DNA of 64,000 nt from Sacculina carcini (Eukaryota; Arthropoda; Thecostraca; Sacculinidae). The DNA is taken from positions 7,220,545-7,284,544 of the forward strand of contig OU696578.1 in the NCBI GenBank assembly GCA_916048095.2, read 5' to 3'. Under the pieces are notes generated by a model. It searched no databases. It saw only the letters and a list, made by a program, of their open reading frames with translations, and had not been told where the DNA came from. This document shows positions 5,105-64,000 of this stretch, piece by piece. Each line of letters opens with the position of its first letter. Within the stretch, counting starts at the first letter, position 1. Both the position numbers and the translations under genes were made by a program.

Positions 5105-5344
5105 ACATTAACGCACAATTTGCACGCATCAACATTTACATATATATTATTGTATATTGACATGTCTTGTTTGATAGCTGTCATCCATTTCTTTCGGAGC
5201 ACCTCCTCTTTCGGTGAACAGAAAACGCTCACTTTGGAGCCACTATTGTAGTTGTCTTTGCACCCGGACACATCACTTATCTGGCATATTTCCTGAATAA
5301 CATAATAACAAAATATTGATACACTATACTTGGGGTACCTTTTG
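5105..5344. other. Unassigned spacer
   Basis: No gene or repeat recognised beyond the LINE flank. Confidence 0.4.
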
Positions 5345-5575
5345 AACCTTTGAACTTTGAACCTTTACCTTTTGAACTTTTGAACCTTATCAACCTTTTG
5401 ATGGTTCCATACCACCAATGTATTGTCCAATATGGTTCAATACCCGCGACTTACTTGACTGTTCAAATAATTATCACCAATCCTATCATAATTTGCCAGT
5501 TTGTCTTCCAGATCCACGAATATTGCAATCGCTTGAATAGATACGGATTACTAGGAAATAGCCAATGATAAATTT
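5345..5575 (+). repeat. Dispersed repeat, copy 1
   Basis: Begins with a short AACCTTTGAAC-type tandem run, then about 180 bp (5400-5575) matching the reverse complement of about 36120-36330. Shared strings include TTACTTGACTGTTCAAATAA, TTATCACCAATCCTAT and GTCTTCCAG, with about 80-85% identity by eye. The family is unknown; no transposase or RT sequence is visible. Confidence 0.6.
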
Positions 5576-6418: not shown

Positions 6419-6454
6419 AAGGGCCTTGTATCTAGGTGGCGTTGGCTAAGCCCA
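6419..6454. repeat. Right arm of a dispersed inverted repeat
   Basis: GGCCTTGTATCTAGGTGGC plus GTTGGCTAAG is the reverse complement of about 3379-3410, with one or two mismatches. The arms face each other about 3 kb apart. This could be a terminal inverted repeat pair or simply two oppositely oriented copies of a short repeat. Confidence 0.6.
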
Positions 6455-7079
6455 CGCACCGGCTGCGTGTGCAAAACACACGCATATGCACACGCAATTA
6501 CAGACGGAATGCATTCGTCAGATGAGCTGCTTCATTAATGCCGGTGCCGACAATCACGACCGACATGCCAGCTCGTATATCACTGGCTCTCCAGTCATAA
6601 ATCATCCCTACACGGCGCGGTCTACTGGTCTCTAGCACAACAAGAACATCTTCCGACAATACGATGCACGGCGTGCATACAAATTAAAACGCGAATTATT
6701 ACGAGAATATTTATCATGTCATGGACATTATATCTTATTTACCTTTACATAGGCATGTAATGATTTATATATTTGTCTCATATTTGTCTATCTGTCATTT
6801 CTCTATTGTCTGGCTTCCTTATCTCATCATCTTATTTTATCCCACTTGCTTCATTGATATTCCTTGATTATTATTATTATTATTAATTACAGGCAAATAC
6901 AGTAGCACGGGAAGAGTGCAAGCACTATTACCACGCTAAGGTGGCCCCATTTACCGGAAGCGCCCAAAAGATTCAGAGAGAAAGAGAGTTCTAAAAGAAA
7001 ATAATTAATATGTAACAATAAATAATAAACCATCATCCGATAACACTCCATAATGTCAGTCCGCCCACGTTCCTCAATA
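6455..7079. other. No recognisable gene
   Basis: Unassigned. Contains a short (ATT)n run near 6868-6886. Confidence 0.5.
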
Positions 7080-34094: not shown

Positions 34095-34284
34095 GTGAAC
34101 GGCACAATTGTGCGTATCAAGCTGAAACACTTTATGTGTCACACGCACGCCGATATTGAGCTGAACGAGCGCGTCACATTTGTCACGGGCGCCAACGGCA
34201 GCGGCAAAAGCGCCGCACTCACCGGCGTCATGGTGGCGCTGGGAGCGGCCGCGCGCAATACAGACCGGGCACGCACGCTGAAAA
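34095..34284 (+). CDS. SMC6 coding exon 2 (ATPase head, Walker A)
   Basis: Encodes the N-lobe of the ABC-type head of SMC6, a core subunit of the Smc5/6 complex that acts in the nucleus in recombination-dependent repair, replication-fork stability and restriction of extrachromosomal DNA. Key motifs are GTIVRIKLKHFMCHTHADIE (family I-x-LKNFMCH), then VTFVTGANGSGKSAALTGVM, which contains the Walker A P-loop G-x-NGSGKSA, then ALGAAARNTDRARTLK. The acceptor is CTGCTAG at 34094. The donor GTACGC at 34285 leaves one base of a split codon (phase 1). A CA-repeat begins just after the donor. The catalytic Lys and Ser of the P-loop are intact. Confidence 0.95.
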
Positions 34285-43602: not shown

Positions 43603-46407
43603 TTACAAAATTTTGGCCGCTTCATAGTTTATACGTTTGCGAGCTGCTTCCGTGGATATTTTCGGCAGTTCAAGCGGTCTTGTTCGTCTCAAGTTGATGT
43701 TGTGTTCACGTGCTGGTTCAAATGTCTCGTACAAGGCAGTGGGTTTTCGGGTCGTCGTTATCGTTCGAATAAGTCGTTTTCTATTGTCGTTGATGAGTGC
43801 ATCCACTGTAGGTAGGCCGAGCTGTCTACAAGTTTCGTAAATGTGGTCGTATTTTCGTTTTTTCGTGAGGACTCGTGCGCAGAAATTGATAATTTTTTGG
43901 ATTCGCTGTTTTTGGATAACTCCGGTAGCACCATAAACAGATATGCAGTATGCCAATACAGAAAAAATGAACGCATTGATGATAGGCCTATGTGTGTGTT
44001 CGGGTAACGATGTCATAGCTTGGTTTAAACATAAAAGAATTCCAGTAGATTTTTGTGTAACATGGGTGATGTGTTTGGTAAATTGTAGGTGTTTGTCCAA
44101 ATGCACGCCTAGAACTTTTACGGCCTCGCTTTCCTTTATAATGCTGTCTTGAAATGTGATCTCAATTTTCGGGAACGTCTTGAGTAAATATTTTGTGCCA
44201 AATATTATAAATTGTGTTTTTGTTGTGTTCACCTTCATTTTGTTTGCGGAGTAATAATCACTGAGTTCTTTGAGTCGCAGTTCCAGGTTGTGCACGCACA
44301 TGGCGAGGTCTTGTCTTGCAGTGGTCGTCATGATAGTAGTATCATCCGCGTAATGTACTACGCGTAACTCATGGTGTTCGTGTTTTCTTGTAAAATGCGC
44401 CGATAAATCATTCGAGAATATCAGAAACAGCACACAGCTCAGACTGCCACCTTGGAAAATCGAGAGGTTCTCAACTGTCGAAACGGTGTCGGATAGATCA
44501 TATGCATGATGATGCTGGACACGTACTTGTTGAGTGTGGCCGTGTAAATAACTGCCGAACCATGAGGGATCTATGTTATGAGCTGCGATCTTGTCGAGAA
44601 GCTTGTCGTGGTGGACGACATCAAAACATTTTGTGAGATCCACAGACACTAGAAGAGTGGCCTCGCGGTTATTCATGGCTTCATAGGCAGTATCGGCTAT
44701 GACCATGAGTGCTGTTTCGCATGACAATCGTCGCCAGTATCCGTGATGGGCGTCGCTGATGAGATGATTATTTTCTAAAAAGTTCATCGTTTGTATTTGT
44801 ATGGCTTTTTCGAGGAGTTTCATGACGGGCGGAAGAATCGATATTGGTCGAGTGTCGTTTTTCGTTTTTGCGTTGTTTTTTGGTACAGGAATAATTATGG
44901 CGTGTTTGAGTCGTTGTGGTACTTGTCGCGAGGTGATGCTGAGGTTGATTATGTCTAACAGAATATGACTGATCGCTTCAAAAGATCTGAACAGCATTTT
45001 CATGTTGATACCGTCTCTGTCTTCACTCGTTGATATCTTCGTTTTCTTCATTATGTTGAACAGCTCTTGCATCGATATTGGCTGCAGTTCCAGTCTACCA
45101 GTGTTGACACGTGGTAGGAGATTGGTAGCCTCGTGAGATGTTTGTTGTATACTTTTCGTAGTGTCTATTCCGGTTCTGACATATCGTGCATTGAGTTCAT
45201 TAGCATTGATCGTAAATGCTGACTTGGTTTTCTTTCGACCGATGATTTCTTCGCACTCTCGCCACATTGATGAAAACGGCTTGTGTCGCATGCTAGTTTC
45301 TATTCGTTCGCGATTGTAAGTTCGGATAGCATTTTTGCACATCATGTTGATTCGCTTGTATTCATCTTTGCTGCCTTGCCTCAAAGCTCGCTTTCTCTGG
45401 TCATACAGTTGTCGTATAAATATAGGCAGAGGTTTTCTATGTGTGTTTCGTATGCGTTTGAATTCGTATGGGCAGAGTATGTTCATTTGTCGCATGAATT
45501 CGTGTACAAATCGGTCATATTTTTCGTCGACTGTCTTGCCACTGTATACCGGAATCCAATTGGAATTTCGCAGAGTAAAATTCAGTGTTCTCATATCTAC
45601 CGTCGTGTAATTTCGCATTAGTTTATATTGATTGTCTTCGTTTCTATCGTCTGTTGAGAACGTATATGAATTATGTGTCCATTTGTGAGGTGAGCCATAG
45701 TGAGAATGGAAAACAGAAACGTGTGTGAGTGAGTGCGCCACATTGGTGGCTACTATGTCAAGCAAACTGTGTGCTGGAACATATGTAGGAATGGTAGTAT
45801 TGGTGATATAGAAGTCATAAGCTGTGAGTAGATTCATCAACTTTTCACCTGGCGCGTCTTCGGTTTGTTTCAGTAAACAACAGTTGAGATCACCACCAAT
45901 TACAACTGCTTGATACGGGCTTCTTGTGAGCACTTCCTGCAGTTGTTCTTCAAAATCACTCAGATCTTCATTGACCTGTCCCACGGTGTTATCAGGCGGT
46001 CGATACACGCTGGCTAGTAGAACAGTTTGACACTTTTTGATATGCACTTTGACCCACACAATCTCTATGTTGCTGCTTATTGAACATGAACTTGTTTGCA
46101 TGACTTCACATGTGTATCCATCTTTTATGTAGATAGCAACTCCTCCGTGTTTCGGTGCTCGTCGTGATGTTATTGGTCTGTCATGTCTGACCAAGTAATA
46201 ATTATGTACATTCAGAAACCGATCGGGTATTTCAGTATGTAGCCACGTTTCGTTGAGTAATATTGCATCATAATCGTATTTCGTTGCTAGGTCGTTTCTC
46301 AAATCAGGTAGCTTTCCTCTGAGCGACTGGACATTCAACTGCGCCACGTCAAATTTGATTGCGTGCTGGTACTTCACAGATGTAGGCTGTTGAGTGCTTT
46401 GGTTCAA
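43603..46407 (-). CDS. LINE ORF2: endonuclease-reverse transcriptase
   Basis: 934 residues. N-terminal APE-type endonuclease: LNVQSLRGKLPDL (Asn), ILLNETWL (catalytic Glu), GGVAIYIKDG, VVIGGDLNCCL (Asp/Asn) and SLLDIVATN. Where the family usually ends in SDH it has GSPHKWTHN, so the Asp may be substituted. Reverse transcriptase from about residue 480: IIIPVPKNNAKTKNDTRPIS, then LLVSVDLTKCFDVVHHDKLL (first Asp), IFQGGSLSCVLFLIFSNDL, and VVHYADDTTIM with the YADD catalytic pair. Then VKVLGVHLDKHLQFTKHI and a C-terminal region with ARVLTKKRKYDHIYETCRQL. It would nick target DNA and reverse-transcribe its own RNA at the nick. Length and the intact YADD suggest a recent, possibly competent copy. 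Confidence 0.93.
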   Translation of the reverse strand: MNQSTQQPTSVKYQHAIKFDVAQLNVQSLRGKLPDLRNDLATKYDYDAILLNETWLHTEIPDRFLNVHNYYLVRHDRPITSRRAPKHGGVAIYIKDGYTCEVMQTSSCSISSNIEIVWVKVHIKKCQTVLLASVYRPPDNTVGQVNEDLSDFEEQLQEVLTRSPYQAVVIGGDLNCCLLKQTEDAPGEKLMNLLTAYDFYITNTTIPTYVPAHSLLDIVATNVAHSLTHVSVFHSHYGSPHKWTHNSYTFSTDDRNEDNQYKLMRNYTTVDMRTLNFTLRNSNWIPVYSGKTVDEKYDRFVHEFMRQMNILCPYEFKRIRNTHRKPLPIFIRQLYDQRKRALRQGSKDEYKRINMMCKNAIRTYNRERIETSMRHKPFSSMWRECEEIIGRKKTKSAFTINANELNARYVRTGIDTTKSIQQTSHEATNLLPRVNTGRLELQPISMQELFNIMKKTKISTSEDRDGINMKMLFRSFEAISHILLDIINLSITSRQVPQRLKHAIIIPVPKNNAKTKNDTRPISILPPVMKLLEKAIQIQTMNFLENNHLISDAHHGYWRRLSCETALMVIADTAYEAMNNREATLLVSVDLTKCFDVVHHDKLLDKIAAHNIDPSWFGSYLHGHTQQVRVQHHHAYDLSDTVSTVENLSIFQGGSLSCVLFLIFSNDLSAHFTRKHEHHELRVVHYADDTTIMTTTARQDLAMCVHNLELRLKELSDYYSANKMKVNTTKTQFIIFGTKYLLKTFPKIEITFQDSIIKESEAVKVLGVHLDKHLQFTKHITHVTQKSTGILLCLNQAMTSLPEHTHRPIINAFIFSVLAYCISVYGATGVIQKQRIQKIINFCARVLTKKRKYDHIYETCRQLGLPTVDALINDNRKRLIRTITTTRKPTALYETFEPAREHNINLRRTRPLELPKISTEAARKRINYEAAKIL

Positions 46408-46439
46408 GAGACTGATATCATAACTGAGATCGCTCGAGC

Positions 46440-47597
46440 TTACTCGTTTTTTGTGTGACTGTCCAGATCAGTTCGTTTTATGATATTCGACTTTATAGCG
46501 GAAAATATAGGACACATGGTCGAGAAGGATGCGTGTTGGCTGTCTTGACGTCCGGCAAGGACACAGTTGTGACATTTTGGATGATCTTTGCTGCTGCAGT
46601 CGTTTGTTTTGTGCGGTCCAGTGCAGTAGCCGCAAACATGCTTGTGTTGACAGTTGATTGTCTTATGATTGAAGCTTTGACATTTCGTACATCTGTTTAC
46701 CCAGAATCTGTCGTAAACTCTGCATCGCTTTGTACCAATGTATATCAAAGAAGTTGACATTATTGCCGCTCTAAGCATGGACGTTGTTTTCACCACAACT
46801 GTTTTGTAATGTTCGTCTGTGTTTTTAGTGAAGAATATTTTGAAATCATCTCGACATTTCATCAGCTCAGATAAATGCGAATTCTTGTGTTTGATACTCT
46901 CGTATATTTCATCGTCAGTGATTTCTTTTTCAACATGTGTTATTGTCAGCTTTGGCTGAAGTTTTGGTAGTGGCTGAGCTGAGCACATCAGTGAAGAACT
47001 AATGTTGGTCATAACGTTTTGAGCCGTATGGGCATTTGGCAGTTTGACAACGTAGTCTCCTGCATGTGTGCTGGTCAGTTTCACAACAGGTACATCTTTC
47101 AGCGCGTTTGCTATTGTGACCTTGCTGTTGGTCTGTTTGTTTGTTGGTCGTATGATCACATCATGTGTAGGTGTAAACGTTTTAGATTGAAAAACTGCTG
47201 CACGTGATTTTGCGCCCTTGTCACTGTCATTTCGATCGGCCTCTATGACTTCAACTCTGTTTTTCAGTTCGTCAACTGTTTGCAACAAATCCTTGTAAGA
47301 CAGGTTAGATTTGCGTTGATCAATTATTCCAATCCATTTCTCAATCGACGCATAATTGTCATTTTTTGATTTCGTACAATTCTCACAGCAATGCTGCTTT
47401 CTGGATGTGAAATATGCGACACATGAATACATTGGAAGACCGGTGCAGGAGACATGAAAATATCCAGCACAATCGCTGCATTTGATGGCATGTTTTTCTA
47501 TCTCTGAACCACATACCTTGCAAACAGTTTCCGGCGGAGGAATATTCCTCGTCGTGTTGATGTCAGGCGGTGGAGGTTCGCTTGAGCCAGGCTTCAT
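46440..47597 (-). CDS. LINE ORF1: PHD-like finger and CCHC nucleic-acid-binding protein
   Basis: 385 residues. A PHD/RING-like zinc finger near residues 22-75: TVCKVCGSEIEKHAIKCSDC, FHVSCTGLP and HCCENC (C4HC3-type spacing). A short coil follows (LLQTVDELKNRVEVIEADRN), then an RRM-like middle region (KLTITHVEKEITDDEIYESI), and near residues 305-365 three CCHC-type knuckles (RCTKCQSFNHKTINC, VCGYCTGPHKTNDC, PKCHNCVLAG). ORF1 proteins of CR1- and Jockey-group LINEs bind the element RNA; PHD-like fingers are known in some CR1-group ORF1s. ORF2 lies 32 bp downstream, so the two may be read from one bicistronic RNA. Confidence 0.88.
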   Translation of the reverse strand: MKPGSSEPPPPDINTTRNIPPPETVCKVCGSEIEKHAIKCSDCAGYFHVSCTGLPMYSCVAYFTSRKQHCCENCTKSKNDNYASIEKWIGIIDQRKSNLSYKDLLQTVDELKNRVEVIEADRNDSDKGAKSRAAVFQSKTFTPTHDVIIRPTNKQTNSKVTIANALKDVPVVKLTSTHAGDYVVKLPNAHTAQNVMTNISSSLMCSAQPLPKLQPKLTITHVEKEITDDEIYESIKHKNSHLSELMKCRDDFKIFFTKNTDEHYKTVVVKTTSMLRAAIMSTSLIYIGTKRCRVYDRFWVNRCTKCQSFNHKTINCQHKHVCGYCTGPHKTNDCSSKDHPKCHNCVLAGRQDSQHASFSTMCPIFSAIKSNIIKRTDLDSHTKNE

Positions 47598-47720
47598 ATC
47601 TTACAATGATATGGACATCAAAGCGTAATCAGCAGCATCAAGTCACTGATAACGCAGTTTCAATCGCAAAATCGGAGCAAATATGTACACTACCACTCGT
47701 GTCAAGGCCAAGAACTGAAC

Positions 47721-48298: not shown

Positions 48299-48747
48299 CT
48301 AGCATTAAAACCCGCCCGTTGTGCGGAACAATTAATAAAATATTGCAAATTAAAAATAAATAAGGCAAACTCATGAAAACCTTAATCAATTAAAAGGTCT
48401 AAATTTCATTATTTTTAATTTTATTTTGACAAAATATTTTCACTCAACCCGCCTCATATTTAAACCCGCCCGACGTGAGGAAAAATTCAGAACTCGAACA
48501 CCATCCGTTCTGGTTCTTGAAGTCAAATCCATTAGTTTTGTATATGAATTCATTCTATACGGTGAAATTGAACGTTTTATTGTTGCCCGCGGGACATTTT
48601 TATTTCATAAAAATGAGCCATCGCTTCGTTTGCGTTTGAAGCCCCTGATCATTGAGCCAGCGAACCATGAACCAGCGCAATTATGTCACCTCATATTCAA
48701 GCATACATACACAGACAGACAGATAATTTCTACTTTATGTATATATA
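48299..48747 (-). mobile_element. Array unit 1, type A Helitron-like (449 bp)
   Basis: On the - strand its 3' end is CTAG (48299-48302 on +), preceded by the CCGCACAACGGGCGGG block. Its 5' end is the TATATATACATAAAGTAG / ATTATCTGTCTGTC region, and it abuts unit 2. Matches the unit at 459-913 in opposite orientation. Confidence 0.6.
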
Positions 48748-50813
48748 TAGCATTAAAACCCGCCCGTTGTGCGGAGCAATTCATGACAATTCATATTCAA
48801 TTCATATTCAATTCATAAAAAAATATGGAAAAATAAAAATGAAATAGGGTACACTCATAAAAATATTAATCAATTGAAAATTATAAGTTTAATTATTTTT
48901 ATTTCGACAAAATATTCCCCCTCAGTCCGCCTGAGTCATTTTTAAACCCGCCCGTCGTGCTGAATAATAATTCAGAACTCGAATAACTGAATAATTCAGA
49001 ACTCGAACACGATCCGTTCTGGATCTTGAAGTCAAATCCATTGGTTTTGTGCATGGATTAATTCTACAGGGTAAATTTAACGTTCTATGGTCTATAGTTG
49101 CTGCCCGCGGAGCATTTTTATTTAAAAAAAATACCTTTTTTAAATGAACCATTTGAAAAAATGAACTAAAAAATGGAAACACTTTTTTTAAACCCGCCCG
49201 TCGTGCGGAACAATTCATACAGTACAATTCATATTTGAAGTCAAATCCATTGGTTTTGTGTATGGATTAATTCTACAGGGGAAATTGAACGTTCTATTGT
49301 TTATAGTTGCTGCCCGCGGAACATTTTATTTAAAAAAAAATTACCTTTTTTTAAATGAACCATTTGAAAAAATGATCTAAAAACACTTTTTTAAACCCAC
49401 CCGTCGTGCGGAACAATTCATACAATAAAATTCATATCAAATCCAGAAAATATAATGAATACAAATTGAAAACCAAAAAATGTAACCTATAAATATCTTA
49501 ACCAATATAAAAGTCTAAATGTGAATATTTTTGTTCTTATTTTGACAAATATTATCCCTCAACCCGCCTGATATATAAATCTGCCCGTCGTGTGGTATAA
49601 TTCAGAACACAAACACGAATCAAACAATGAAAGATGATGAAATCATTTCATCAGAATATTTCCAAACTATAAGTGTAATTTTGGATGTATTTGAGAATTT
49701 TGCCAATTTTACACGTTTTTTTGTATCATTTGTGGGTATAAATTATAGCTTATCTTGTAGAACACAAAATTATCTACACAGTAGTATATTCCTGTGTAAT
49801 CGCAAGTGCGCTTAATAGCTGTCAAATTGGCAATATGTCCTTTTGACTTTACACCGCCGTAACTTCCTTCAGATACACTTTGGAAAATTACAAATTATGC
49901 CGTATTGTAGAAAACAAGATTTCTAGCACGATGGTATAATTTATGTTTATGTGTAACAAATAGTTACTGAGAAATAGTAGAAAAATGAATTAATTTTAGT
50001 CGCCCGGTGTTCAAGTGAAATTTTGGATGTATTTGAGAATTTTGACAATTTTACACGTTTTTTGTATCATTTGTGGGTATAAATTAGAATATTTCTTGTA
50101 GAACACAAAATTCTCTACACAATAGTATAATTTTTATAACTGTAACTCTGCTGGTTTAAGAGGAATAGATAGCGGAATTTTGACCAAAATATTCGCGTTT
50201 TTCAGTGCCTTTTTGACTTTGTCATTTTGACTTCACACCGCCGTAACTTTTTTTTAATACGCTCTGGAAAATTAAAATTTATACCGTGCTGTAGAAAACA
50301 AAATTCTCAGCATGATGGTAATATTTATTTAGATGTGTGATGTTTAGTTGCTGAGAAATAGAGAAAAAAGTACAAAAAATCGGACGCGTCGAGCTTGAAT
50401 ATAATTTTGAATGTAGACTGAAATTTTGTCATTTTTACATAATTTATATTTAATTTTTGGATATTAATTATAGCCTATCGTGTAGAACAGAATATTCTCT
50501 ACACAGTGGTATAATCTGTTTGGCTGTACCATTTCTGGTTTATGAGGAGTAGATGTAGGAATATTGACCAAAATTTTCGCATTTTTCAGGGTTCATTTTG
50601 TCTTTTCACCGCGATAACTTTTTTTGGTTTTATTTTTAAAATTTGAAATTTATCCTATCGTGTAGACAAGAAAATTTCCAGCGTAATGGTATAAATTGTT
50701 GGCGGGTACATTTAGTGGTCACCGAGTAGCAGCTTGCTGAAAATGTGACCAAGGAGGGTGGGACAGACAAACACACAGACAGACAGACAGAGGATCTCTT
50801 TTATATATATAGA
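48748..50813 (-). mobile_element. Array unit 2, type B Helitron-like (2.07 kb)
   Basis: The 5' end (- strand) is TCTATATATATAAAAGAG at 50813, followed by a CTGTCTGTC tract and a CCCACCCTCCTTGG block. The 3' end is CCGCACAACGGGCGGG, spacer, then CTA at 48748. The interior has two of the roughly 340-bp CCGCCGTAACTT repeats. It is a deletion variant of units 5 and 9. The 5' TC directly touches the CTAG of unit 3. Confidence 0.6.
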
Positions 50814-51027
50814 CTAGCATTAAAACCCGCCCGTTGTGCGGAGCAATTCATAACATGAATAACTGCCCGCGGGACATTTTTATTTCATAAAAATGAGCCA
50901 TCGCTTCGTTTGCGTTTGAAGCCCCTGATCATTGAACCAGCGAACCATGAACCAGCGCAATTATGTCACCTCATATTCAAGCATACATACATAGACAGAC
51001 AGATAATTTCTTCTTTATGAATATATA
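50814..51027 (-). mobile_element. Array unit 3, internally deleted type A (214 bp)
   Basis: Begins at CTAG (50814-50817) joined without spacer to unit 2. It contains only the terminal blocks and the CCCGCGGGACATTTTT region of type A. Confidence 0.55.
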
Positions 51028-51487
51028 TAGCATTAAAACCGCATTAAAACCCGCCCGTTGTGCGGAACAATTCATAAAAATATTGCAAACTAAAAATAAA
51101 TAAGGCAAACTCATGAAGACCTTAATCAATTAAAAAGTCTAAATTTCATTATTTTTAATTTTATTTTGACAAAATATTTTCACTCAACCCGCCTCATATT
51201 TAAACCCGCCCGACGTGAGGAAAAATTCAGAACTCGAACACCATCCGTTCTGGTTCTTGAAGTCAAATCCATTAGTTTTGTATATGAATTCATTCTATAC
51301 GGTGAAATTGAACGTTTTATTGCTGCCCGCGGGACATTTTTATTTCATAAAAATGAGCCATCGATTCGTTTGCGTTTGAAGCCCCTGATCATTGAACCAG
51401 CGAACCATGAACCAGCGCAATTATGTCACCTCATATTCAAGCATACATACACAGACAGACAGATAATTTCTTCTTTATGTATATATA
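51028..51487 (-). mobile_element. Array unit 4, type A (460 bp)
   Basis: Full type A unit with a 13-bp duplication of its terminal GCATTAAAACC. Nearly identical to unit 8 at 57983-58442. Confidence 0.58.
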
Positions 51488-54400
51488 TAGCATTAAAACC
51501 CGCCCGTTGTGCGGAGCAATTCATAACAATTCATATTCAATTCATATTCAATTCATAAAAAAATATGGAAAAATAAAAATGAAATAGGGTACACTCATAA
51601 AAATATTAATCAATTGAAAATTATAAGTTTAATTATTTTTATTTCGACAAAATATTCCCCCTTAGTCCGCCTGAGTCATTTTTAAACCCGCCCGTCGTGC
51701 TGAATAATAATTCAGAACTCGAATAACTGAATAATTCAGAACTCGAACACGATCCGTTCTGGATCTTGAAGTCAAATCCATTGGTTTTGTGCATGGATTA
51801 ATTCTACAGGGTAAATTTAACGTTCTATGGTCTATAGTTGCTGCCCGCGGAGCATTTTTATTTTTTTTAAATACCTTTTTTTAAATGAACCATTTGAAAA
51901 AATGAACTAAAAAATGGAAACACTTTTTGTAAACCCGCCCGTCGTGCGGAACAATTCATACAATACAATTCATATTTGAAGTCAAATCCATTGGTTTTGT
52001 GTATGGATTAATTCTACAGGGGAAATTGAACGTTCTATTGTCTATAGTTGCTGCCCGCGGAACATTTTTATTTAAAAAAAAAACTTTTTTTAAATGAAAC
52101 ATTTGAAAAAATGATCTAAAAACACTTTTTTAAACCCACCCGTCGTGCGGAACAATTCATACAATAAAATTCATATCAAATCCAGAAAATATAATGAATA
52201 CAAATTGAAAACCAAAAAATGTAACCTATAAATATCTTAACCAATAGAAAAGTCTAAATGTGAATATTTTTGTTCTTATTTTGACAAATATTATTCCTCA
52301 ACCCTCCTGATATATAAATCTGCCCGTCGTGTGGTTTAATTCAGAACACAAACACGAAACAAACAATGAAAGATGATGAAATCTTTTCATCAGAATGTTT
52401 CCAAACTATATTTATTACTTAACATCATTCCCCAATATCATTTGCTCAAGTACTATTTCACTTTTACCGCTATAATATTTATTGTTAAAATTTATATATT
52501 TTCCGCTATCATTAAAATCCAATATAACCTGAGTCAAACCTACCCAACCCAACCCAACCATTCAATATTGACCGCTCTCAGCCTAGTCTGAGGTGATTTA
52601 ACTTATTAGTTTGTGATCACAAAAAATACTGATGCGATCATAATTTGTAATCAGAAGACTGAGATTATCTACCCCAGGGGTCCCAAACACGCGGCCCACC
52701 AATACTTTTCTCTCAACCCGCCAATATAGTATCGGGACCAGACTGTAATGCAGCAAAATTCACATTTGTTGCATAATGCGATATAATTATACACCATTAT
52801 CATATTATCTCATAATTCCCGGTTAATGCTTCCACTAATGCATCATATTCATACAGTTGTTATTTTTTTGATTACACCGATATTACAGCCCTTGATATTA
52901 CAGCCGATATTATATTATGCAATCTATATTCTGCTACGTATTATTCCTAATACATATATCATCAGATCGCAAAATATATCTAAAGGTTCACATCACTCTC
53001 CAAAATCATTTGCTTAAGAGCTATTCTACTTTTATCGCTAGAATATTTACTGCTAGCAAAATATCATATACCTCGCTATCATTTAAACCCACTCTTTATA
53101 GATACATTTAATTCCCCCGTCGTGCGGAACAGTTCATAAAGTATAATTAATATTGAATTCATAAAAATATTAGTGCAAATTGAAAAAGAAAAACAAACCC
53201 ATAGGAACGTTTTAGCCAATATAAATGTCTAAATGTGAAATTTATGCTTCAATTTAGAAAACATGTTTTTCCACAACCCGCCTCATATTTAAAGCTGCCC
53301 GTGGTGCGGAATAATTCAAACACGAAACAAACACAAAGAAAATTGATGAAAAACGACCAACAGAAAAAGTCAAATTTGTAAATTCTTGTTTTAATTATTG
53401 ACGATGTTTTTCCCTCAACACGGCTCAAATTCACACCCGTCCTTCGTGTGTAGTAACTCAGAAGTGTAACACTATCAAAACAATGAAACTTTCTGTCATC
53501 TCTATAATTCCAGATTTATGCGACCGCTAAAACAGCATATTCATATAGTTGGCATTGCATGATATTACAACCCATATCCTTATGCAAGTTAAGCTTATGC
53601 AATTTGAAATTAAACCAATTAAATTATACAGTAAAATTCAGTAGTTAACTTTGTTCCCAGTAGTATTTTACCCGCCCGTCGGGCGGAACAATTCATGTGT
53701 AAATATTGAGGACAATAAAGCCTTTCTATTCAGTATAGTGTAGCATTTATTAAACTGTACCCAATAAAACCACACGATCCATGCTTGGAGCTAATATGAT
53801 GCATTCTTAATTGTGATTGGGCTTCAGTGAAATTTAATCGGTGTATATTCCTGTGTAATCACAAGTGCGCATAATAGCTGTCAAATTGGTAATATGTGCT
53901 TTTAACTTTACACCGCCGTAACTTCCTTCAGATACACTTTGGAAAATTACAAATTATATCGTTTTGTAGAAAATAAGATTTCTAGCACTATGGTATAATT
54001 TATTTTTATGTGTTACAAATAGTTACTGAGAAATAGTACAAAAAAGAATTAATCTTAGTCGCCCGGTGTTCAAGTGTAATTTTGGATGTATTTGAGAATT
54101 TTGCCAATTTTCTACGTTTTTTGTAACATTTGTGGGTATAAATTATAGCTTATCTTGTAGAACACAAAATTCTCTACACAGTAGTATATTCCTGTGTAAT
54201 CGCAAGTGCGTAAATTGTGATTGGACTTTAGTGAAATTAAATCAGTGTATATTCATGTGTAATCGCAAGTACGCATAATAGCTGTCAAATTGGCAACATG
54301 ACATTTTGACTTTACACCGCCGTAACTTCCTTCAGATACACTTTGGAAAATTAAAAATTATACCGTATTGTAGAAAACATAATTTCTAGCACGATGGTAT

Positions 54401-55630
54401 AATTAATTTTAAGGTGTGACAAACAGTTCCTGAGAAATGGGTAGAAAAATGAATAAATTTTAGTCACCCGGTGTTCAAGTGTAATTTTGGATGCATTTGA
54501 GAATTTTGCCAATTTTACACGTTTTTTGTATCATTTGTGGGTATAAATTATACCTTTTCTTGTAGAACAAAAAATTATCTACACAGTTGTATATTCCTGT
54601 GTAATCGCAAGTGCGCATAATAGCTGTCAAATTGGCAACATGTCCTTTTGACTTTACACCGCCGTAACTTCCTTCAGATACACTTTGGAAAACTAAAAAT
54701 TATACCGCATTTTAAAAAATACAATTTCCAGCACGATGATATAATTTATTTTAATGTGTGACAAATAGTTCCTGAGAAATAGGTAGAAAAATGAATTAAT
54801 TTAGGCGCCCGGTGATCAAGTGTAATTTTGGATGTATTTGACAATTTTGCCAATATTACACATTTTTTGTATCATTTGTGGGTATAAATTATAACTTTTC
54901 TTGTAGAACACAAAATTATCTACACAATGGTATAATTTTTATAGCTGTACCATTGCTGGTTTATGAGGAATACATAGCGGAATATTGACCAAAATATTCA
55001 CGTTTTTGTGCGATAATTATGCCTTTTTGACTTTGTCATTTACACTTCACACCGCCGTAACTTTTTTTTAATACACTTTGGAAAATTAAAAATTATCCCT
55101 TGTTGTAGCAAACAAAATTCCCAGCATGATGGTATTATTTATTTAGATGTGTGATAATTAGTTTTTGATAAATAGAGAAAAAAGTATAGAAAATCGGACG
55201 CGTGGAGTTTAAATATAATTTTGAATATAGATTGAAATTTTGTCATGTTTACATCTTTTATGTTCTATTTTTGGATATGAATTATAACCTATCTTGTAGA
55301 ACAGAAAATTCTCTACACAGTGGTATAATCTGTATTACTGTACCATTTCTGGTTTATGAGGAGTAGATGTAGGAATATTGACCAAAATTTTCGCATTTTT
55401 CAGGGTTCATTTTGTGTTTTCACCGCGATAACTTTTTTTGGTTTTATTTTTAAAATTTAAAATTTATCCTATCGTGTAGACAAGAAAATTTCCAACGTAA
55501 TGGTATAAATTGTTGGCGGGTACATTAAGTGGTTACCGAGTAGCAGTTTGCTGAAAATGGACCAAGGAGGGTGGGACAGACAAACACACAGACAGACAGA
55601 CACACAGAGGATCTCTTTTATATATATAGA
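51488..55630 (-). mobile_element. Array unit 5, long type B (4.14 kb)
   Basis: Ends in TCTATATATATAAAAGAG (5' on the - strand) at 55630, immediately followed on the + strand by the CTAG of unit 6 at 55631-55634. It carries several internal CCGCACGACGGGC blocks and at least four tandem repeats of about 340 bp between about 53850 and 55200. No protein with Rep, helicase or transposase motifs. Confidence 0.6.
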
Positions 55631-57530
55631 CTAGCATTAAAACCCGCCCGTTGTGCGGAGGAATTCATAAAATGGAATTAATATTCATAATAATTCATAT
55701 TCATAAAAATATTCCAAATTAAAAAAGAAAATGAAAACTCATCAGTGTCTTACTCAATAGAAAAGTCCAAGTGTTAATATTTTTATTTTTGTTTTGACAT
55801 AATATTTTCCCTCAACCCGCCTCATATATAAACCAACCCATTGTGCGGAATAATTCAGAACACAAACACGTAACAAACAATGAAAATCCTAGCATGTAAA
55901 CCCGCCCGTCGTGCGAAACAGTTCATACTATTAAATTTGTATTCAATTCATGAGAGAAAAGGAATATGAATTAAAAAAGAGTTGAGTAAACCCATAAAAA
56001 AGTCTAAATTTCTATATTTTCATATTTATTTTCACAAAATAGTTTGCCTAAACCGCCTCATATTTATACATGCCCGTCGTGCTGAATAATTCAGAACTCA
56101 GACACGAAACAATGAAAAATGACTACACTTTTTCATCATAATGTTTCCAAAATATTTTAATAACTTAATATCACCGTCTAGCATTGAAACCCGCCAGTTG
56201 TGCGGAGCAATTCATAAGATGAAATTCATATTTAATTCATAAACATATTGCAAATTGAAAAAGAAAACAGATATACTCATTAAAATCTTACTCAATTGAA
56301 AAGTCTAAATTCAATTATATTTTTTGACAACATATTTTCCTTCAGCCCGTCTCATATTTAAACCCGCCCGTCGTGCTGAACAATTTATAAAATAAAATGC
56401 ATATTCAATCCATAAAATAAAATGCATATTCAATCCATAAAATAAACTGAATACAAATTAAAAAGCAAAACATTTAACATTTTCCCTCGAACAGCCTCAT
56501 ATTTGAACCCGCCCGTCGTGCGGAACAATTAAGCCCCAACACCAATGGTTCTTTATATATAAACCAACTAATGACAACTAACTAACTAATATTCAAATGG
56601 TTCTTTATTATATAATAATGGTTTTTTATTTAATGGTTCTATATGGTACAATAATTCAGTAGTTTACTTTGTTCCCAGTAGCATTTTACCCGCCCGTCGT
56701 GCGGAACAATTAAGCCCCTGAACTATACCATTGAACCCGCGCAATTATGTCACCTCATATTCAAGCATACACACACAGACAGACAGATAATTTCTTCTTT
56801 ATGTTTAAATATACCATTGAACCTGCGCAATTATGTCACCTCATATTCAAGCATACATACACAGACAGACAGATAATTTCTTCTTTATGTATATATATGG
56901 CATTAATACAACTTAATAAATAACTTTTTTTTAATACACTCTGGAAAATTAATAATAAACTTTTTTTTAATACACTCTGGAAAATTAAAAATTATACCGT
57001 GCTGTAGAAAACAAAATTCCCAGCATGATGGTAATATTTATTTAGATGTGTCATAGTTAGTTGCTGAGAAATAGAGAAAAAAGTACAAAAAATCGGACGC
57101 GTCGAGCTTAAATATAATTTTGAATGTAGACTGAAATTTTGTCATTTTTACATATTTTATATTTAATTTTTGGATATTAATTATAGCCTATCGTGTAGAA
57201 CAGAATATTTTCTACACAGTGGTATAATCTGTTTGGCTGTACCATTTCTGGTTTATGAGGAGTAGATGTAGGAATATTGACCAAAATTTTCGCATTTTTC
57301 AGGGTTCATTTTGTCTTTCCACCGCGATAACTTTTTTTGGTTTTATTTTTAAAATTTTAAATTTATCCTATCGTGTAGACAAGAAATTTTCCAACGTAAT
57401 GGTATAAATTGTTGGCGGGTACATTAAGTGGTTACCGAGTAGCAGCTTGCTGAAAATGTGACCAAGGAGGGTGGGACAGACAAACACACAGACAGACAGA
57501 CAGACAGAGGATCTCTTTTATATATATAGA
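55631..57530 (-). mobile_element. Array unit 6, composite of truncated units (1.9 kb)
   Basis: Starts with CTAG (55631-55634) and includes further CTAGCAT-type ends at about 55879 and 56163, two copies of the type A 5' end near 56780 and 56880, and a type B 5' end at 57530. Best read as several truncated copies nested or concatenated. Confidence 0.5.
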
Positions 57531-58442
57531 TATAGCATTAAAACCCGCCCGTTGTGCGGAAGAATTAATAAAAATATTGCAAATTAAAAATAAATAAGGC
57601 AAACTCATAAAAACCTTAATCAATTAAAAAGTCTAAATTTCATTATTTTTAATTTACATTTTGACAAAATATTTTCACTCAGCCCGCCTCATATTTAAAC
57701 CCGGCCGACGTGCGGAATAATTCAGAACTCGAACACCATCCGTTCTGGTTCTTGAAGTCAAATCCATTAGTTTTGTATATGAATTCATTCTACACGGTGA
57801 AATTGAACGTTTTATTGCTGCCCGCGGGACATTTTTATTTCATAAAAATGAGCCATCGCTTCGTTTGCGTTTGAAGCCCCTGATCATTGAACCAGCGAAC
57901 CATGAACCAGCGCAATTATGTCACCTCATATTCAAGCATACATACACAGACAGACAGATAATTTCTTCTTTATGTATATATATAGCATTAAAACCGCATT
58001 AAAACCCGCCCGTTGTGCGGAACAATTCATAAAAATATTGCAAATTAAAAATAAATAAGGCAAACTCATGAAGACCTTAATCAATTAAAAAGTCTAAATT
58101 TCATTATTTTTAATTTTATTTTGACAAAATATTTTCACTCAACCCGCCTCATATTTAAACCCGCCCGACGTGAGGAAAAATTCAGAACTCGAACACCATC
58201 CGTTCTGGTTCTTGAAGTCAAATCCATTAGTTTTGTATATGAATTAATTCTATACGGTGAAATTGAACGTTTTATTGCTGCCCGCGGGACATTTTTATTT
58301 CATAAAAATGAGCCATCGCTTCGTTTGCGTTTGAAGCCCCTGATAATTGAACCAGCGAACCATGAGCCAGCGCAATTATGTCACCTCATATTCAAGCATA
58401 CATACACAGACAGACAGATAATTTCTTCTTTATGTATATATA
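57531..58442 (-). mobile_element. Array units 7 and 8, two type A copies in tandem
   Basis: 57531-57982 and 57983-58442 are head-to-tail copies of about 455 bp each. They share the same terminal blocks, differ at a few percent of sites, and the second carries the same GCATTAAAACC duplication as unit 4. Confidence 0.6.
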
Positions 58443-61400
58443 TAGCATTAAAACCCGCCAGTTGTGCGGAGCAATTCATAACATGAAATTCATATTCAAT
58501 TCATAAAAAATATGGAAAAATAAAAATGAAATAGGGTACACTCATAAAAATATTAATCAATTGAAAATTATAAGTTTAATTATTTTTATTTCGACACAAT
58601 ATTTCCCCTCAGTCCGCCTGAGTCATTTTTAAACCCGCCCGTCGTGCTGAATAATTCAGAACTCGAACACGATCCGTTCTGCATCTTGAAGTCAAATCCA
58701 TTGGTTTTGTGTATGGATTAATTCTACAGGGTAAATTGAACGTTCTATTGTCTATAGTTGCTGCCCGCGGAACATTTTTATTTTAAAAAAAAAAACCTTT
58801 TTTTAAATGAACCATTTGAAAAAATGATCTAAAAACACTTTTTTAAACCCACCCGTCGTGCGGAACAATTCATACAATAAAATTCATATCAAATCCATAA
58901 AATATAATGAATACAAATCGAAAAGCAAAAAATGTAACCTATAAATATCTTAACCAATAGAAAAGTCTGAATGTGAATATTTTTGTTCTTATTTTGACAA
59001 ATATTATCCCTCAACCCGCCTGATATATAAATCTGCCCGTCGTGTGGTATAATTCAGAACACAAACACGAAACAAACAATGAAAGATGATGAAATCTTTT
59101 CATCAGACTGTTTCCAAACTATATTTATTACTTAACATCATTCCCCAATATCATTTGCTTAAGTACTATTTCACTTTTACCGCTATAATATTTATTGTTA
59201 AAATTTATATATTTTCCGCTATCATTAAAACCCAATATAACCTGAGTCAAACCTACCCAACCCAACCCAACCATTCAATCTTGACCGCTCTCAGCCTAGT
59301 CTGAGGTGATTTAACTTATTAGTTTGTGATCACAAAATATACTGATGCGATCATAATTTGTAATCAGAAGACTGAGATTATCTACCCCAGGGGTCCCAAA
59401 CACGCGGCCCACCAATACTTTTCTCTCAACCGGCCAATATAGTATCGGGATCAAACTGTAAGGTAGCTAAATTCACATTTGTTGCATAATGCGATATAAT
59501 TTTACACCATTATCATATTATCTCATAATTCCCGGTTAATGCTTCCACTAATGCATCATATTCATACAGTTGTTATTTTTTGGATTACATCGATAATGCA
59601 GCCCTTGATATTACAGCCGATATTATATTATGCAATCTATATTCTGCTACGTATTATTCCTAATACATATATCATCAGATCGCAAAATATATTTAAAGGT
59701 TCACATCATTCTCCAAAATCATTTGCTTAAGAGCTATTCTACTTTTATCGCTAGAATATTTACTGCTAGCAAAATATCATATACCTCGCTATCATTTAAA
59801 CCCACTCTTTATAGATACATTTAATTCGCCCGTCGTGCGGAACAGTTCATAAAATATAATTAATATTCAATTCATAAAAAAATTAGTGCAAATTGAAAAA
59901 GAAAAACAAACCCACAGGAAAGTTATAGCTAATCTAAAAGTCTAAATGTGAAATTTATGTTTCAATTTAGAAAACATGTTTTTCCACAACACTATCAAAA
60001 CAATGCAACCTTCTGTCATCTCTATAATTCCAGGTTAATGCTTCCGCTAAAACAGCATAAGTTGGCATTACATGATATTGCAACCCATATCCTTATGCAA
60101 CTTATGCTTATGCAACTTGAAATTAAACCAATTAAATTACACAGTTAAATTCAGTAGTTTACTTTGTTCCCAATAGCATTTTACCCGCCCGTCGTGCGGA
60201 ACGTTATTGAGGACAATAAAGCCTTTATATTCAGTAGAGTGTAGCATTAATTAAACTGTACGCAATAAAACCACACCATCCATGCTTGGAGATAATATGA
60301 TGCATTCTTAATTGTGATTGGGCTTCAGTGAAATTTAATCGGTGTATATTCCTGTGTAATCGCAAGTGCGCATAATAGCTGTCAAATTGGCAATATGTCC
60401 TTTTGACTTTACACCGCCGTAACTTCCTTCAGATACCCTTTGGAAAATTACAAATTATACCGTATTGTAGAAGAAAAGGTTTCTAGAACGATGGTATGAT
60501 TTATTTTTATGTGTAACAAATAGTTACTGAGAAATAGTATAAAAATGAATTAATTTTAGTCGCCCGGTGTTCAAGTGTAATTTTGGATGTATTTGAGAAT
60601 TTTGCCAATTTTACACGATTTTTGTATCATTTGTGGGTATAAATTATAGCTTTTCTTGTAGAACACAAAATTCTCTACACAGTAGTATATTCCTGTGTAA
60701 TCGCAAGTGCGCATAATAGCTGTCAAATTGGCAATATGTCCTTTTGACTTTACACCGGCGTAACTTCCTTCAGATACACTTTGGAAAATTAATAATTATA
60801 CCGTACTGTAGGAAACAAAATTTCTAGCACGATGGTATAATTAATTTTAATGTATGACAAACAGTTCCTGAGAAATGGGTATAAAAATGAATAAATTGTA
60901 GTCACCCGGTGTTCAAGTGTAATTTTGGATGTATTTGAGAATTTTGCCAATTTTACACGTTTTTTGTATCATTTGTGGGTATAAATTACACCTTTTCTTG
61001 TAGAACACAAAATTCTCTACACAGTAGTATATTCCTGTGTAATCGCAAGTGCGCATAATAGCTGTCAAATTGGCAATATGTCCTTTTGACTTTACACCGC
61101 CGTCACTTCCTTCAGATACACTTTGGAAAATTAAGAATTATACCGCATTTTAAAAAATACAATTTCCAGCACGATGATATAATTTATTTTAATGTGTGAC
61201 AAATAGTTCCTGAGAAATAGGTAGAAAAATGAATTAATTTAGGCGCCCGGTGATCAAGTGTAATTTTGGATGTATTTGACAATTTTGCCAATTTTACACA
61301 TTTTTTGTATCATTTGTGGGTATAAATTATAACTTTTCTTGTAGAACACAAAATTATCTACACAATAGTATAAATTTTATAGCTGTACCATTGCTGGTTT

Positions 61401-62076
61401 ATGAGGAATAGATAGGGGAATATTTACCAAAACATTCACGGTTTCCAGTGCTAATTTTGCATTTTTGACTTTGTCATTTTGACTTCACACCGCCGTAACT
61501 TTTTTTCAATACACTTTGGAAAATTAAAAATTATACCGTGTTGTAGCAAACAAAATTCCCAGCATGATGGTATTATTTATTTAGTTGTGTGATAATTAGT
61601 TTTTGATACATAGAGAAAAAAGTATAGAAAATCGGACGCGTGGAGTATAAATATAATTTTGAATATAGATTGAAATTTTGTCATGTTTACATCTTTTATG
61701 TTCTATTTTTGGATATGAATTATAACCTATCTTGTAGAAGAGAAAATTCTCTACACAGTGGTATAATCTGTTTGGCTGTACCATTTCTGGTTTATGAGGA
61801 GTAGATGGCAGAGCATTGACCACAATTTTCGCATTTTTCAGGGTTCATTTTGTCTTTTCACCGCTATAACTTTTTATGATTTCATTTTTGAAATTTAAAA
61901 TTTAATCTAAAGTGTAGACAAGAAAATTTCCAACGTGATGGTATAAATTGTTAGCGGGTAGGCTGAGTGGTGGCCGAATAATAGCTGATAGAAAATGGAC
62001 CAAGGAGGGTCGAACACACACACAGACACACACACACACAGACAGACACACAGAGGATCTCTTTTATATATATAGA
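58443..62076 (-). mobile_element. Array unit 9, long type B (3.63 kb)
   Basis: Same layout as unit 5. Homologous segments are offset by 6,713 bp at 52373/59086. Three internal tandem repeats with a measured period of 341-342 bp lie at about 60559-61244. The 5' end (- strand) is at 62075-62076. Confidence 0.6.
60359..61300. repeat. Roughly 342-bp tandem repeats inside unit 9
   Basis: The string GCCCGGTGTTCAAGTGTAAT recurs at 60562, 60904 and 61245 (one or two substitutions), giving periods of 342 and 341 bp. Each repeat contains ACCGCCGTAACTTCCTTCAG and TTTTGTATCATTTGTGGGTA. The same repeat occurs in units 2 and 5. Confidence 0.85.
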
Positions 62077-62869
62077 TTTGCCAATTTTACACATTTTTTG
62101 TATCATTTGTGGGTATAAATTATAACTTTTCTTGTAGAACACAAAATTATCTACACAATAGTATAAATTTTATAGCTGTACCATTGCTGGTTTATGAGGA
62201 ATAGATAGGGGAATATTTACCAAAACATTCACGGTTTCCAGTGCTAATTTTGCATTTTTGACTTTGTCATTTTGACTTCACACCGCCGTAACTTTTTTTC
62301 AATACACTTTGGAAAATTAAAAATTATACCGTGTTGTAGCAAACAAAATTCCCAGCATGATGGTATTATTTATTTAGTTGTGTGATAATTAGTTTTTGAT
62401 ACATAGAGAAAAAAGTATAGAAAATCGGACGCGTGGAGTATAAATATAATTTTGAATATAGATTGAAATTTTGTCATGTTTACATCTTTTATGTTCTATT
62501 TTTGGATATGAATTATAACCTATCTTGTAGAAGAGAAAATTCTCTACACAGTGGTATAATCTGTTTGGCTGTACCATTTCTGGTTTATGAGGAGTAGATG
62601 GCAGAGCATTGACCACAATTTTCGCATTTTTCAGGGTTCATTTTGTCTTTTCACCGCTATAACTTTTTATGATTTCATTTTTGAAATTTAAAATTTAATC
62701 TAAAGTGTAGACAAGAAAATTTCCAACGTGATGGTATAAATTGTTAGCGGGTAGGCTGAGTGGTGGCCGAATAATAGCTGATAGAAAATGGACCAAGGAG
62801 GGTCGAACACACACACAGACACACACACACACAGACAGACACACAGAGGATCTCTTTTATATATATAGA
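62077..62869 (-). repeat. Array unit 10, 793-bp direct duplication of the end of unit 9
   Basis: 62077-62869 repeats 61284-62076. I see no differences by eye, including the microsatellite-like CACACACAGACACA block. It lacks a 3' terminus, so it is a tandem duplication or truncated copy rather than a complete unit. Confidence 0.85.
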
Positions 62870-62873
62870 TATA

Positions 62874-64000
62874 TAGCATTAAAACCCGCCAGTTGTGCGG
62901 AGCAATTCATAACATGAAATTCATATTCAATTCATAAAAAATATGGAAAAATAAAAATGAAATAGGGTACACTCATAAAAATATTAATCAATTTAAAATT
63001 ATAAGTTTAATTATTTTTATTTCGACACAATATTTCCCCTCAGTCCGCCTGAGTCATTTTTAAACCCGCCCGTCGTGCTGAATAATTCAGAACTCGAACA
63101 CGATCCGTTCTGCATCTTGAAGTCAAATCCATTGGTTTTGTGTATGGATTAATTCTACAGGGTAAATTGAACGTTCTATTGTCTATAGTTGCTGCCCGCG
63201 GAACATTTTTATTTAAAAAAAAAACTTTTTTTAAATTAACCATTTGAAAAAATGATCTAAAAACACTTTTTTAAACCCACCCGTCGTGCGGAACAATTCA
63301 TACAATAAAATTCATATCAAATCCATAAAATATAATGAATACAAATCGAAAAGCAAAAAATGTAACCTATAAATATCTTAACCAATAGAAAAGTCTAAGT
63401 GTGAATATTTTTGTTCTTATTTTGACAAATATTATCCCTCAACCCGCCTGATATATAAATCTGCCCGTCGTGTGGTATAATTCAGAACACAAACACGAAA
63501 CAAACAATGAAAGATGATGAAATCTTTTCATCAGACTGTTTCCAAACTATATTTATTACTTAACATCATTCCCCAATATCATTTGCTTAAGTACTATTTC
63601 ATTTTTACCGCTATAATATTTATTGTTAAAATTTATATATTTTCCGCTATCATTAAAACCCAATATAACCTGAGTCAAACCTACCCAACCCAACCCAACC
63701 ATTCAATCTTGACCGCTCTCAGCCTAGTCTGAGGTGATTTAACTTATTAGTTTGTGATCACAAAATATACTGATGCGATCATAATTTGTAATCAGAAGAC
63801 TGAGATTATCTACCCCAGGGGTCCAAACACGCGGCCCACCAATACTTTTCTCTCAACCGGCCAATATAGTATCGGGATCAAACTGTAAGGTAGCTAAATT
63901 CACATTTGTTGCATAATGCGATATAATTTTACACCATTATCATATTATCTCATAATTCCCGGTTAATGCTTCCACTAATGCATCATATTCATACAGTTGT
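62874..64000 (-). mobile_element. Array unit 11, type B, runs off the window
   Basis: Starts with the same TAGCATTAAAACCCGCC end as unit 9. It is about 99% identical to 58443-59570 over the visible 1.1 kb, the offset being about 4,430 bp. Confidence 0.6.

What the first reader, a model, noticed from the sequence alone, without database searches (positions are those of the whole stretch)
48299..64000. Gapless head-to-tail concatemer of Helitron-like units
At 50813/50814 and 55630/55631 the 3' end of one unit (CTAG on the - strand) is joined with no intervening base to the 5' TC of the next (TCTATATATATAAAAGAG). At least nine units of two length classes (about 450 bp and 2-4 kb) follow one another in the same orientation for 15.7 kb, and the array leaves the window. 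TC start, a GC-rich palindromic block about 10 nt before the end, and a CTAG terminus are Helitron hallmarks. Head-to-tail joins are what rolling-circle replication without termination would leave. A 15-kb run alternating short and long units inside the intron of an essential gene is unusual. Some junctions show only CTA, and the hairpin is weak.
Basis: partly seen in the sequence, partly recalled or inferred. Interest (0 to 1): 0.75.

Follow-up and report, generated by a model that had tools for sequence, protein, structure and literature searches.

The report
Helitron family that stacks head-to-tail
The stretch is a stack of six pieces of an abundant, fairly young Helitron jumping-gene family whose copies repeatedly land exactly at the front edge of copies already present, so the gapless joins look like repeated landings of different copies rather than one long rolling-circle product.

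Summary
Helitron: yes. Single rolling-circle concatemer: not supported. Both gapless joins (50813/50814, 55630/55631) are real, and the exact join occurs about 400 times in the 264-Mb genome (388 with a 28-letter pattern, 440 with a 32-letter one). Of 2239 exact 5' ends, 1771 follow A and 388 follow the 3' end of another copy; of 3169 exact 3' ends, 2616 are followed by T. The 11 solo copies examined (at most 7 independent insertions) all read A|TC...CTAG|T, and one empty site shows no base gained or lost. The unit's 5' region also lies upstream of an intact 1704-codon Rep-PIF1 frame; that element's 3' end is unresolved. The "two length classes" are mostly an artefact: 57533-62076 is one 4.54-kb element, 99.4% identical to a unit on another contig. 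Six units remain, not nine. Neighbours are usually not sisters (2 of 13 pairs mutually nearest), and 26-31 of 33 joins are distinct pairings. Best reading: serial insertion at the A^T that each resident copy recreates at its own 5' edge. The test of sites just inside that edge stayed unanswered, and the intron claim is unproven.

The parts
62874..64000 (-). Unit U1, 3' part only (the 5' part lies beyond the window, where the next 5000 bases read N); matches C4 unit positions 2504-3637 at 98.8%; ends CTA, followed by a TATA spacer (62870-62873)
62077..62869 (-). Unit U2: 5' 793 bp only, starts at TC, 0 differences to the first 793 bp of U3, broken off at an internal GGCAAA directly before the TC of U3
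57533..62076 (-). Unit U3: full 4544-bp composite non-autonomous Helitron, 99.41% identical to a unit on contig C4; contains internal 3'-type ends without CTAG
55631..57530 (-). Unit U4: 1900-bp family member, TC...CTAG; preceded by a TA spacer at 57531-57532
55630..55631 (-). Gapless head-to-tail join CTAG|TC between U4 and U5
50814..55630 (-). Unit U5: 4817-bp composite member, TC...CTAG, largely colinear with the C4 unit
50813..50814 (-). Gapless head-to-tail join CTAG|TC between U5 and U6
48299..50813 (-). Unit U6: 2515-bp member lacking middle parts of the C4 unit, TC...CTAG; the host base after CTAG is T
48299..48331 (-). 3' terminus with weak GC-rich stem (CCGC/GCGG) and CTAG end
34098..34283 (+). 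SMC6 head-domain exon (Walker A) of a gene upstream of the array; context, not part of the array

Best explanation
The array is a pile-up of separately inserted members of one canonical Helitron family (5' TC, 3' CTAG with a weak GC-rich stem, target A^T, no duplication). Because a Helitron inserts between A and T and itself begins with T, every insertion leaves a new A^T exactly at its own 5' edge, followed by a TA-rich tract. A later copy inserted there is joined CTAG|TC to the resident with no intervening base and in the same orientation. Repetition builds heterogeneous head-to-tail stacks. SHOWN: canonical ends and target, an empty site, many distinct exact joins, mostly non-sister neighbours in the sample, strong orientation bias, 5' sequence shared with a Rep-helicase element. 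INFERRED: that the resident 5' edge is the target (through its sequence, or because transposase bound or nicked it) and that the Rep-helicase relatives supply the transposase.
For: Counts: 5' ends 2239, preceded by A 1771, preceded by another copy's 3' end 388; 3' ends 3169, followed by T 2616; reversed-pattern controls 0 in each. 11 of 11 solos A|TC...CTAG|T; 5 of them share one flank context and count as one insertion at most. Empty site once, on C20. Neighbours: 2 of 13 pairs mutually nearest among 37 5' regions, 0 of 12 among 3' regions. 26-31 of 33 joins distinct pairings at 5% to 1% thresholds. C4 neighbours differ by 38 mismatches and 3 gap columns, C4 unit a and U3 on C10 by 26 and 2, C4 unit b and U3 by 40 and 3. 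Spacers on the first 6.1 Mb of C1, exact ends only: of 51 5' ends, 10 lie within 200 bp of an upstream same-strand 3' end; 7 at spacer 0, the others 6, 16 and 18; opposite-strand control 1, at 33 bp. Head-to-head joins at the same A^T: 1 site versus 388 head-to-tail. Helraiser prefers AT-rich targets, most strongly on the 3' side (PMC4778049, passage), which fits the TA-rich 5' end as target and the common orientation.
Against: Adjacent units are on average closer than random pairs (5' region mean distance 0.092 vs 0.165, resampling P 0.0055; 3' region 0.131 vs 0.217, P 0.043; C4 pairs left out; the resampling ignores shared units), so local duplication or same-burst insertion contributes. L034/L035 and L037/L038 are mutually nearest in the 5' region. 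U2 is an exact local copy of the front of U3 starting at TC. 4 of the 13 'adjacent' pairs are joins 7-17 kb apart and may have a unit between them. Spacered joins exist, including one of 7 bp with a variant 3' end that the exact count missed. The direct test (how often sites just inside the 5' end are hit) did not complete. 30 of the 33 joins compared lie on C1.
Confidence: 0.65

Rival explanations
1. Rolling-circle replication without termination (or integration of a multimeric circle) laid down the array as one concatemer, later diversified.
For: Exact CTAG|TC joins are the joins found in Helraiser circles (PMC4778049 and PMC5876387, passages). Some arrays have uniform periods, e.g. C4 4544 and 4545 bp. 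Neighbours are closer than random pairs on average. Internal 3'-type ends without CTAG in composite units fit bypass of 3' ends.
Against: Window units U3-U6 differ in length (4544, 1900, 4817, 2515 bp) and in identity to the C4 unit. 2 of 13 neighbour pairs mutually nearest in the 5' region and 0 of 12 in the 3' region. One C4 unit is closer to U3 on C10 than to its neighbour. 26-31 of 33 joins pair distinct partners.
Confidence: 0.15
2. Transposase bound to or nicking the 5' end of a resident copy joins the CTAG 3'-OH of another copy to that 5' TC in trans, i.e. the circle-closing reaction carried out between two elements, so the resident end itself and not a generic A^T is the target.
For: 7 of 10 close tandem pairs on the first 6.1 Mb of C1 have spacer exactly 0. 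Exact joins are about 2800-fold above the random-A^T expectation (388 vs 0.14). Orientation 388 to 1. Helraiser transposase cleaves single-stranded DNA exactly between flank and 5' TC (PMC4778049, passage).
Against: Joins with spacers exist (16 and 18 bp in TA tracts; 6 bp; 7 bp), and insertions inside TA tracts next to other copies' 5'-type ends are seen (right flanks), so generic TA sites are used too. The count of sites just inside the 5' end was not obtained. Clustering in insertion-tolerant DNA and later duplication also inflate the enrichment.
Confidence: 0.15
3. Ordinary tandem duplication, unequal crossing-over or segmental duplication of one initial pair.
For: U2 duplicates the first 793 bp of U3 exactly. 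L025 and L029 are near-identical on both sides of the join in inverted orientation 21 kb apart. Solos with identical flanks were co-amplified.
Against: 26-31 of 33 joins are distinct on at least one side, and exact joins lie on many contigs.
Confidence: 0.05

Closest known systems
Helraiser / Helibat1 of bats (canonical animal Helitron; PMC4778049, PMC5876387, passages seen)
   Same: 5' TC, CTAG 3' end, insertion between A and T with AT-rich preference, Rep plus helicase transposase, bypass of the 3' end, exact TC-CTAG joins in circles
   Different: Here the exact joins sit in chromosomal arrays between diverged members, and the Rep-helicase relative is far larger (at least 24 kb of shared blocks counted from the 5' end on C1, against 5.3 kb)
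Tandem Helitron clusters of Myotis and Bombyx, and neighbouring distantly related Helitrons in bat and maize (cited in PMC4067079, passage seen)
   Same: Head-to-tail chromosomal arrays; [quoted passage not shown]
   Different: The tandem arrays are ascribed there to a bypassed termination signal; here the neighbours inside gapless arrays of one family are mostly not sisters in the sample
Centromeric Helitron arrays of plants (Xiong et al. 2016, only as described in PMC12628747, passages seen)
   Same: Tandem Helitron arrays, explained there by rolling-circle amplification
   Different: Many of those have multiple 5' ends and a single 3' end; here five of the six window units have a 3' end
Triple Helitron of Metarhizium and FoHelis with several 5' termini (PMC5148889, passages seen)
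   Same: Authors leave open insertion into a resident 5' end versus rolling-circle replication of a circle; one FoHeli4 sits 2 bp upstream of another
   Different: Single cases there; about 400 exact joins here allow the alternatives to be compared

Membership tests
Helitron (canonical) | 5' TC terminus joined to host A | tested here: met
   1771 of 2239 exact 5' ends follow A, a further 388 follow a 3' end, 80 neither; 11 of 11 solos
Helitron (canonical) | 3' CTRR terminus joined to host T | tested here: met
   CTAG; 2616 of 3169 exact 3' ends followed by T; 11 of 11 solos
Helitron (canonical) | No target-site duplication | tested here: met
   One empty site with no base gained or lost; of 11 solos 7 have no repeat across the insert, 3 have 8, 12 or 18 bp inside TA tracts and 1 has 2 bp (TA)
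Helitron (canonical) | Hairpin about 10-15 nt before the 3' end | tested here: inconclusive
   CCGC/GCGG stem about 13 nt before the end in 4 of 4 window termini folded as DNA, but not more stable than shuffles (z -0.66 to -1.47); RNA-parameter folds of three termini differ
Helitron (canonical) | Autonomous partner with Rep and helicase domains and the same ends | tested here: inconclusive
   Rep PF14214 5.2e-58 and PIF1 4.5e-50 in an intact 1704-codon frame; 5' region shared at two loci, exact 5' end in the C1 copy, about 26 terminal bases missing in the C36 copy; 3' end not resolved
Helentron / HINE (DINE-1 type) | Insertion within TT with T tracts as boundaries | tested here: not met
   A^T target and TC/CTAG ends in 11 of 11 solos
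Helentron / HINE (DINE-1 type) | Subterminal inverted repeats | not tested
   No search for them was made
Rolling-circle concatemer | Adjacent units are sister copies | tested here: not met
   2 of 13 pairs mutually nearest in the 5' region, 0 of 12 in the 3' region; C4 neighbours no closer than a unit on C10. Against: neighbours closer than random pairs on average
Classical satellite DNA | Units found in tandem arrays only | tested here: not met
   11 solo copies with both flanks read; 41 of 51 exact 5' ends in 6.1 Mb of C1 have no exact same-strand 3' end within 200 bp upstream, though at least one of these has a variant 3' end there

The most novel reading that the evidence does not exclude
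Helitron transposase uses the 5' end of resident copies as its target: after nicking (or while bound at) A|TC it joins the CTAG end of another copy to it in trans, so that the circle-closing reaction becomes a chain-building reaction, and stacks grow by terminus-directed insertion rather than by read-through.
Probability: 0.3. Interest if true: 0.7.

Novelty: new member of a known kind. Interest (0 to 1): 0.42.

Why it matters
Head-to-tail Helitron arrays have been cited as support for rolling-circle transposition (PMC5876387, passage). This genome, with about 400 exact joins, over 2000 exact 5' ends and intact Rep-helicase frames, allows read-through to be told from repeated insertion at resident ends, and it shows that a gapless CTAG|TC join alone is not proof of read-through.

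Tried and rejected
Rejected: counting each 450-bp module as a unit. Rejected: taking the Rep-helicase remnant 17 kb beyond the window (C10:7301312-7301886) as partner of this family; no array similarity and no family ends were found in the 10-kb locus L012. Led nowhere: the 3' end of the Rep-helicase element. C1 and C36 copies share blocks of about 88-98% identity over more than 20 kb, and the first 3' end on C1 is 33.6 kb from the 5' end, across rearrangements. Led nowhere: Pfam on the coiled-coil-like frames (only sub-cutoff hits), a PDB search with one further frame (nothing), a viral-contig scan for the 3' end (0 matches). Not done: naming the organism; a proper test for an age gradient along arrays.

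Unanswered (not completed): PF14214 first try (answered); joins just inside the 5' end (in longer form, then with one shorter pattern); SMC family search. One search was a script that failed and was rerun.

In one search only 51 of the 100 listed 5' ends (those up to 6.1 Mb) and 99 of the 100 listed 3' ends were used (one left out); only exact ends were counted. Motif hits ISGGERS and LSGGES at 81291 and 82466 (window numbering) were judged chance and not followed.
Full report
THE OBSERVATION. The window is G000:C10:7220545-7284544 of a 264.4-Mb genome in 43 contigs. The minus strand reads ...CGGGCGGGTTTTAATGCTAG|TCTATATATATAAAAGAG... at 50813/50814 and 55630/55631, with no base between. The exact 32-letter join occurs 440 times in the genome and the reversed control 0 times. 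If all 3169 exact 3'-end copies had inserted at random A^T sites, about 0.14 exact joins would be expected; with the 28-letter pattern 388 are seen (AT density taken from the window).

WHAT THE UNITS ARE. A unit on contig C4 bounded by two perfect joins is 4544 bp long and 99.41% identical, over its length, to window 62076-57533. The 450-bp modules are its 3' parts, and the 3'-type ends inside it lack CTAG. Such composites fit the 3'-end bypass described for Helraiser (PMC4778049, abstract and passages). Counting real ends gives six units from right to left: U1 (cut by the window edge, 3' end 62874), U2 (62869-62077, a 793-bp 5' fragment with 0 differences to the front of U3), U3 (62076-57533), U4 (57530-55631), U5 (55630-50814), U6 (50813-48299, followed by host T). 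The 5000 bases after the window read N, so U1's 5' part cannot be read.

HELITRON MEMBERSHIP. Of 2239 exact 5' ends, 1771 follow A and 388 follow the 3' end of another copy, leaving 80. Of 3169 exact 3' ends, 2616 are followed by T. The 11 solo copies for which both flanks were read, all on C1, read A|TC...CTAG|T. Seven have no repeat across the insert; three have 8, 12 or 18 bp inside TA tracts and one has 2 bp. Five of the 11 show identical 90-bp flanks; two of these (L007, L008) differ by 3 of 1500 bases in the flank and 2 of 1518 in the insert, so they look co-amplified and the 11 are at most 7 independent insertions. The joined flank was found empty once, on C20, 90/100 and 95/100 identical on the two sides, with no base gained or lost. 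A CCGC/GCGG stem lies about 13 nt before the end in 4 of 4 window termini folded as DNA, but is no more stable than shuffles (z -0.66 to -1.47).

AUTONOMOUS RELATIVE. PF14214 gives 150 matches (150 of 179 candidates scored), best E 9.5e-58, several in open frames of over 1300 codons. Two loci were read outward. On C1 the exact 5' end and the array unit's 5' part (90% over 2925 bp) lie about 10 kb upstream of the Rep domain. On C36 the same 5' region (98.4% over 767 bp, lacking about 26 terminal bases) lies upstream of an intact 1704-codon frame with Rep and PIF1 domains. The two loci share blocks of about 88-98% identity over more than 20 kb. On C1 the next 3' end (up to 3 mismatches allowed) is 33.6 kb away, but that stretch holds an inverted piece of the unit and a 716-bp direct repeat pair. 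So the exact 5' end is shared in one copy, the 5' region in two, and a shared 3' end is not shown. The C1 copy's reading frame is broken; it was only described.

READ-THROUGH OR REPEATED INSERTION? A concatemer predicts sister neighbours. Among 37 sampled 5' regions, 2 of 13 neighbour pairs are mutually nearest; among 34 3' regions, 0 of 12. 'Neighbour' means consecutive exact joins; 4 of the 13 are 7-17 kb apart and may hide a unit. Against this reading, neighbours are closer than random pairs on average (0.092 vs 0.165, P 0.0055; 3' regions 0.131 vs 0.217, P 0.043; C4 pairs left out; the resampling ignores shared units), so local bursts or duplications contribute. On C4, neighbours a and b differ by 38 mismatches and 3 gap columns; a and U3 on C10 by 26 and 2; b and U3 by 40 and 3. 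Of 33 joins with both sides read, 31, 29, 28 and 26 are distinct pairings at 1, 2, 3 and 5% thresholds; 30 of these joins lie on C1 because only the first places were given as loci.

On the first 6.1 Mb of C1, 10 of 51 exact 5' ends lie within 200 bp of an exact upstream same-strand 3' end: 7 at exactly 0 bp, the rest at 6, 16 and 18; one opposite-strand case at 33 bp. A further 7-bp case with a variant 3' end was missed by that count. The head-to-head join at the same A^T exists once against 388 head-to-tail.

MECHANISM. A Helitron inserts between A and T and begins with T, so its 5' edge A|TC is a fresh A^T followed by TATATATATA. Helraiser prefers A^T with AT-rich DNA, most strongly on the 3' side (PMC4778049, passage). 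Insertion there gives CTAG|TC with no spacer and the same orientation. This deduction is mine; I did not see it stated in the passages I read, and I make no claim that it is absent from print. Whether plain sequence preference or the transposase itself directs copies to that edge is open, because the count of insertions just inside the 5' end did not complete.

WHAT IS KNOWN. Tandem Helitron arrays are known from bats, silkworm and plants and are read as bypassed termination or rolling-circle amplification; distantly related Helitrons directly next to one another are also noted for bat and maize (PMC4067079, PMC5876387, PMC12628747, passages). The Fusarium paper leaves insertion into a resident 5' end and rolling-circle replication as alternatives for a triple copy in Metarhizium (PMC5148889, passages). 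PMC12628747 reports that McGurk and Barbash saw insertion-site preference as the main route to transposon dimers in Drosophila melanogaster (passage). The finding is a new member of a known kind, with many exact joins.

HOST GENE. 34098-34283 (+) matches SMC6 (E 7.5e-14). Coiled-coil-like frames follow at about 39.3-40.1 kb and, by eye, at 43.1-43.4 kb; then come non-LTR retrotransposon frames at 43603-46467 and 46440-47600 (-). A convincing C-terminal SMC6 motif was not found, so "intron" is unproven.

Noticed in passing
window 43603-46467 (-) and 46440-47600 (-): Non-LTR retrotransposon frame (endonuclease and reverse transcriptase, 954 aa) with an adjoining 386-aa frame, directly beside the array.
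   Followed up: partly
L012 (G000:C10:7296545-7306544), about 2277-6701 (-): A different, frame-broken Rep-helicase Helitron relative about 17 kb past the window, with no similarity to the array units.
   Followed up: partly
G000:C35:3.3-4.5 Mb: 28 of the 150 listed Rep-domain matches, partial and in both orientations, lie in about 1.1 Mb; possibly a repeat-rich region.
   Followed up: no
G000:C36:1181045 and 1210320: Two Rep-helicase copies 29.3 kb apart in the same orientation, 99.97% identical over 3543 bp; recent duplication or assembly duplicate.
   Followed up: no
L007, L008, L069, L073, L075 (G000:C1): Five solo insertions with identical 90-bp flanks inside what looks like another Helitron's 3'/5' contact zone; one larger composite appears to have been amplified.
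   Followed up: partly
window 62077-62869: A 793-bp fragment that starts exactly at the 5' TC and is a perfect local copy of the neighbouring unit's front; not easily explained by slippage.
   Followed up: no
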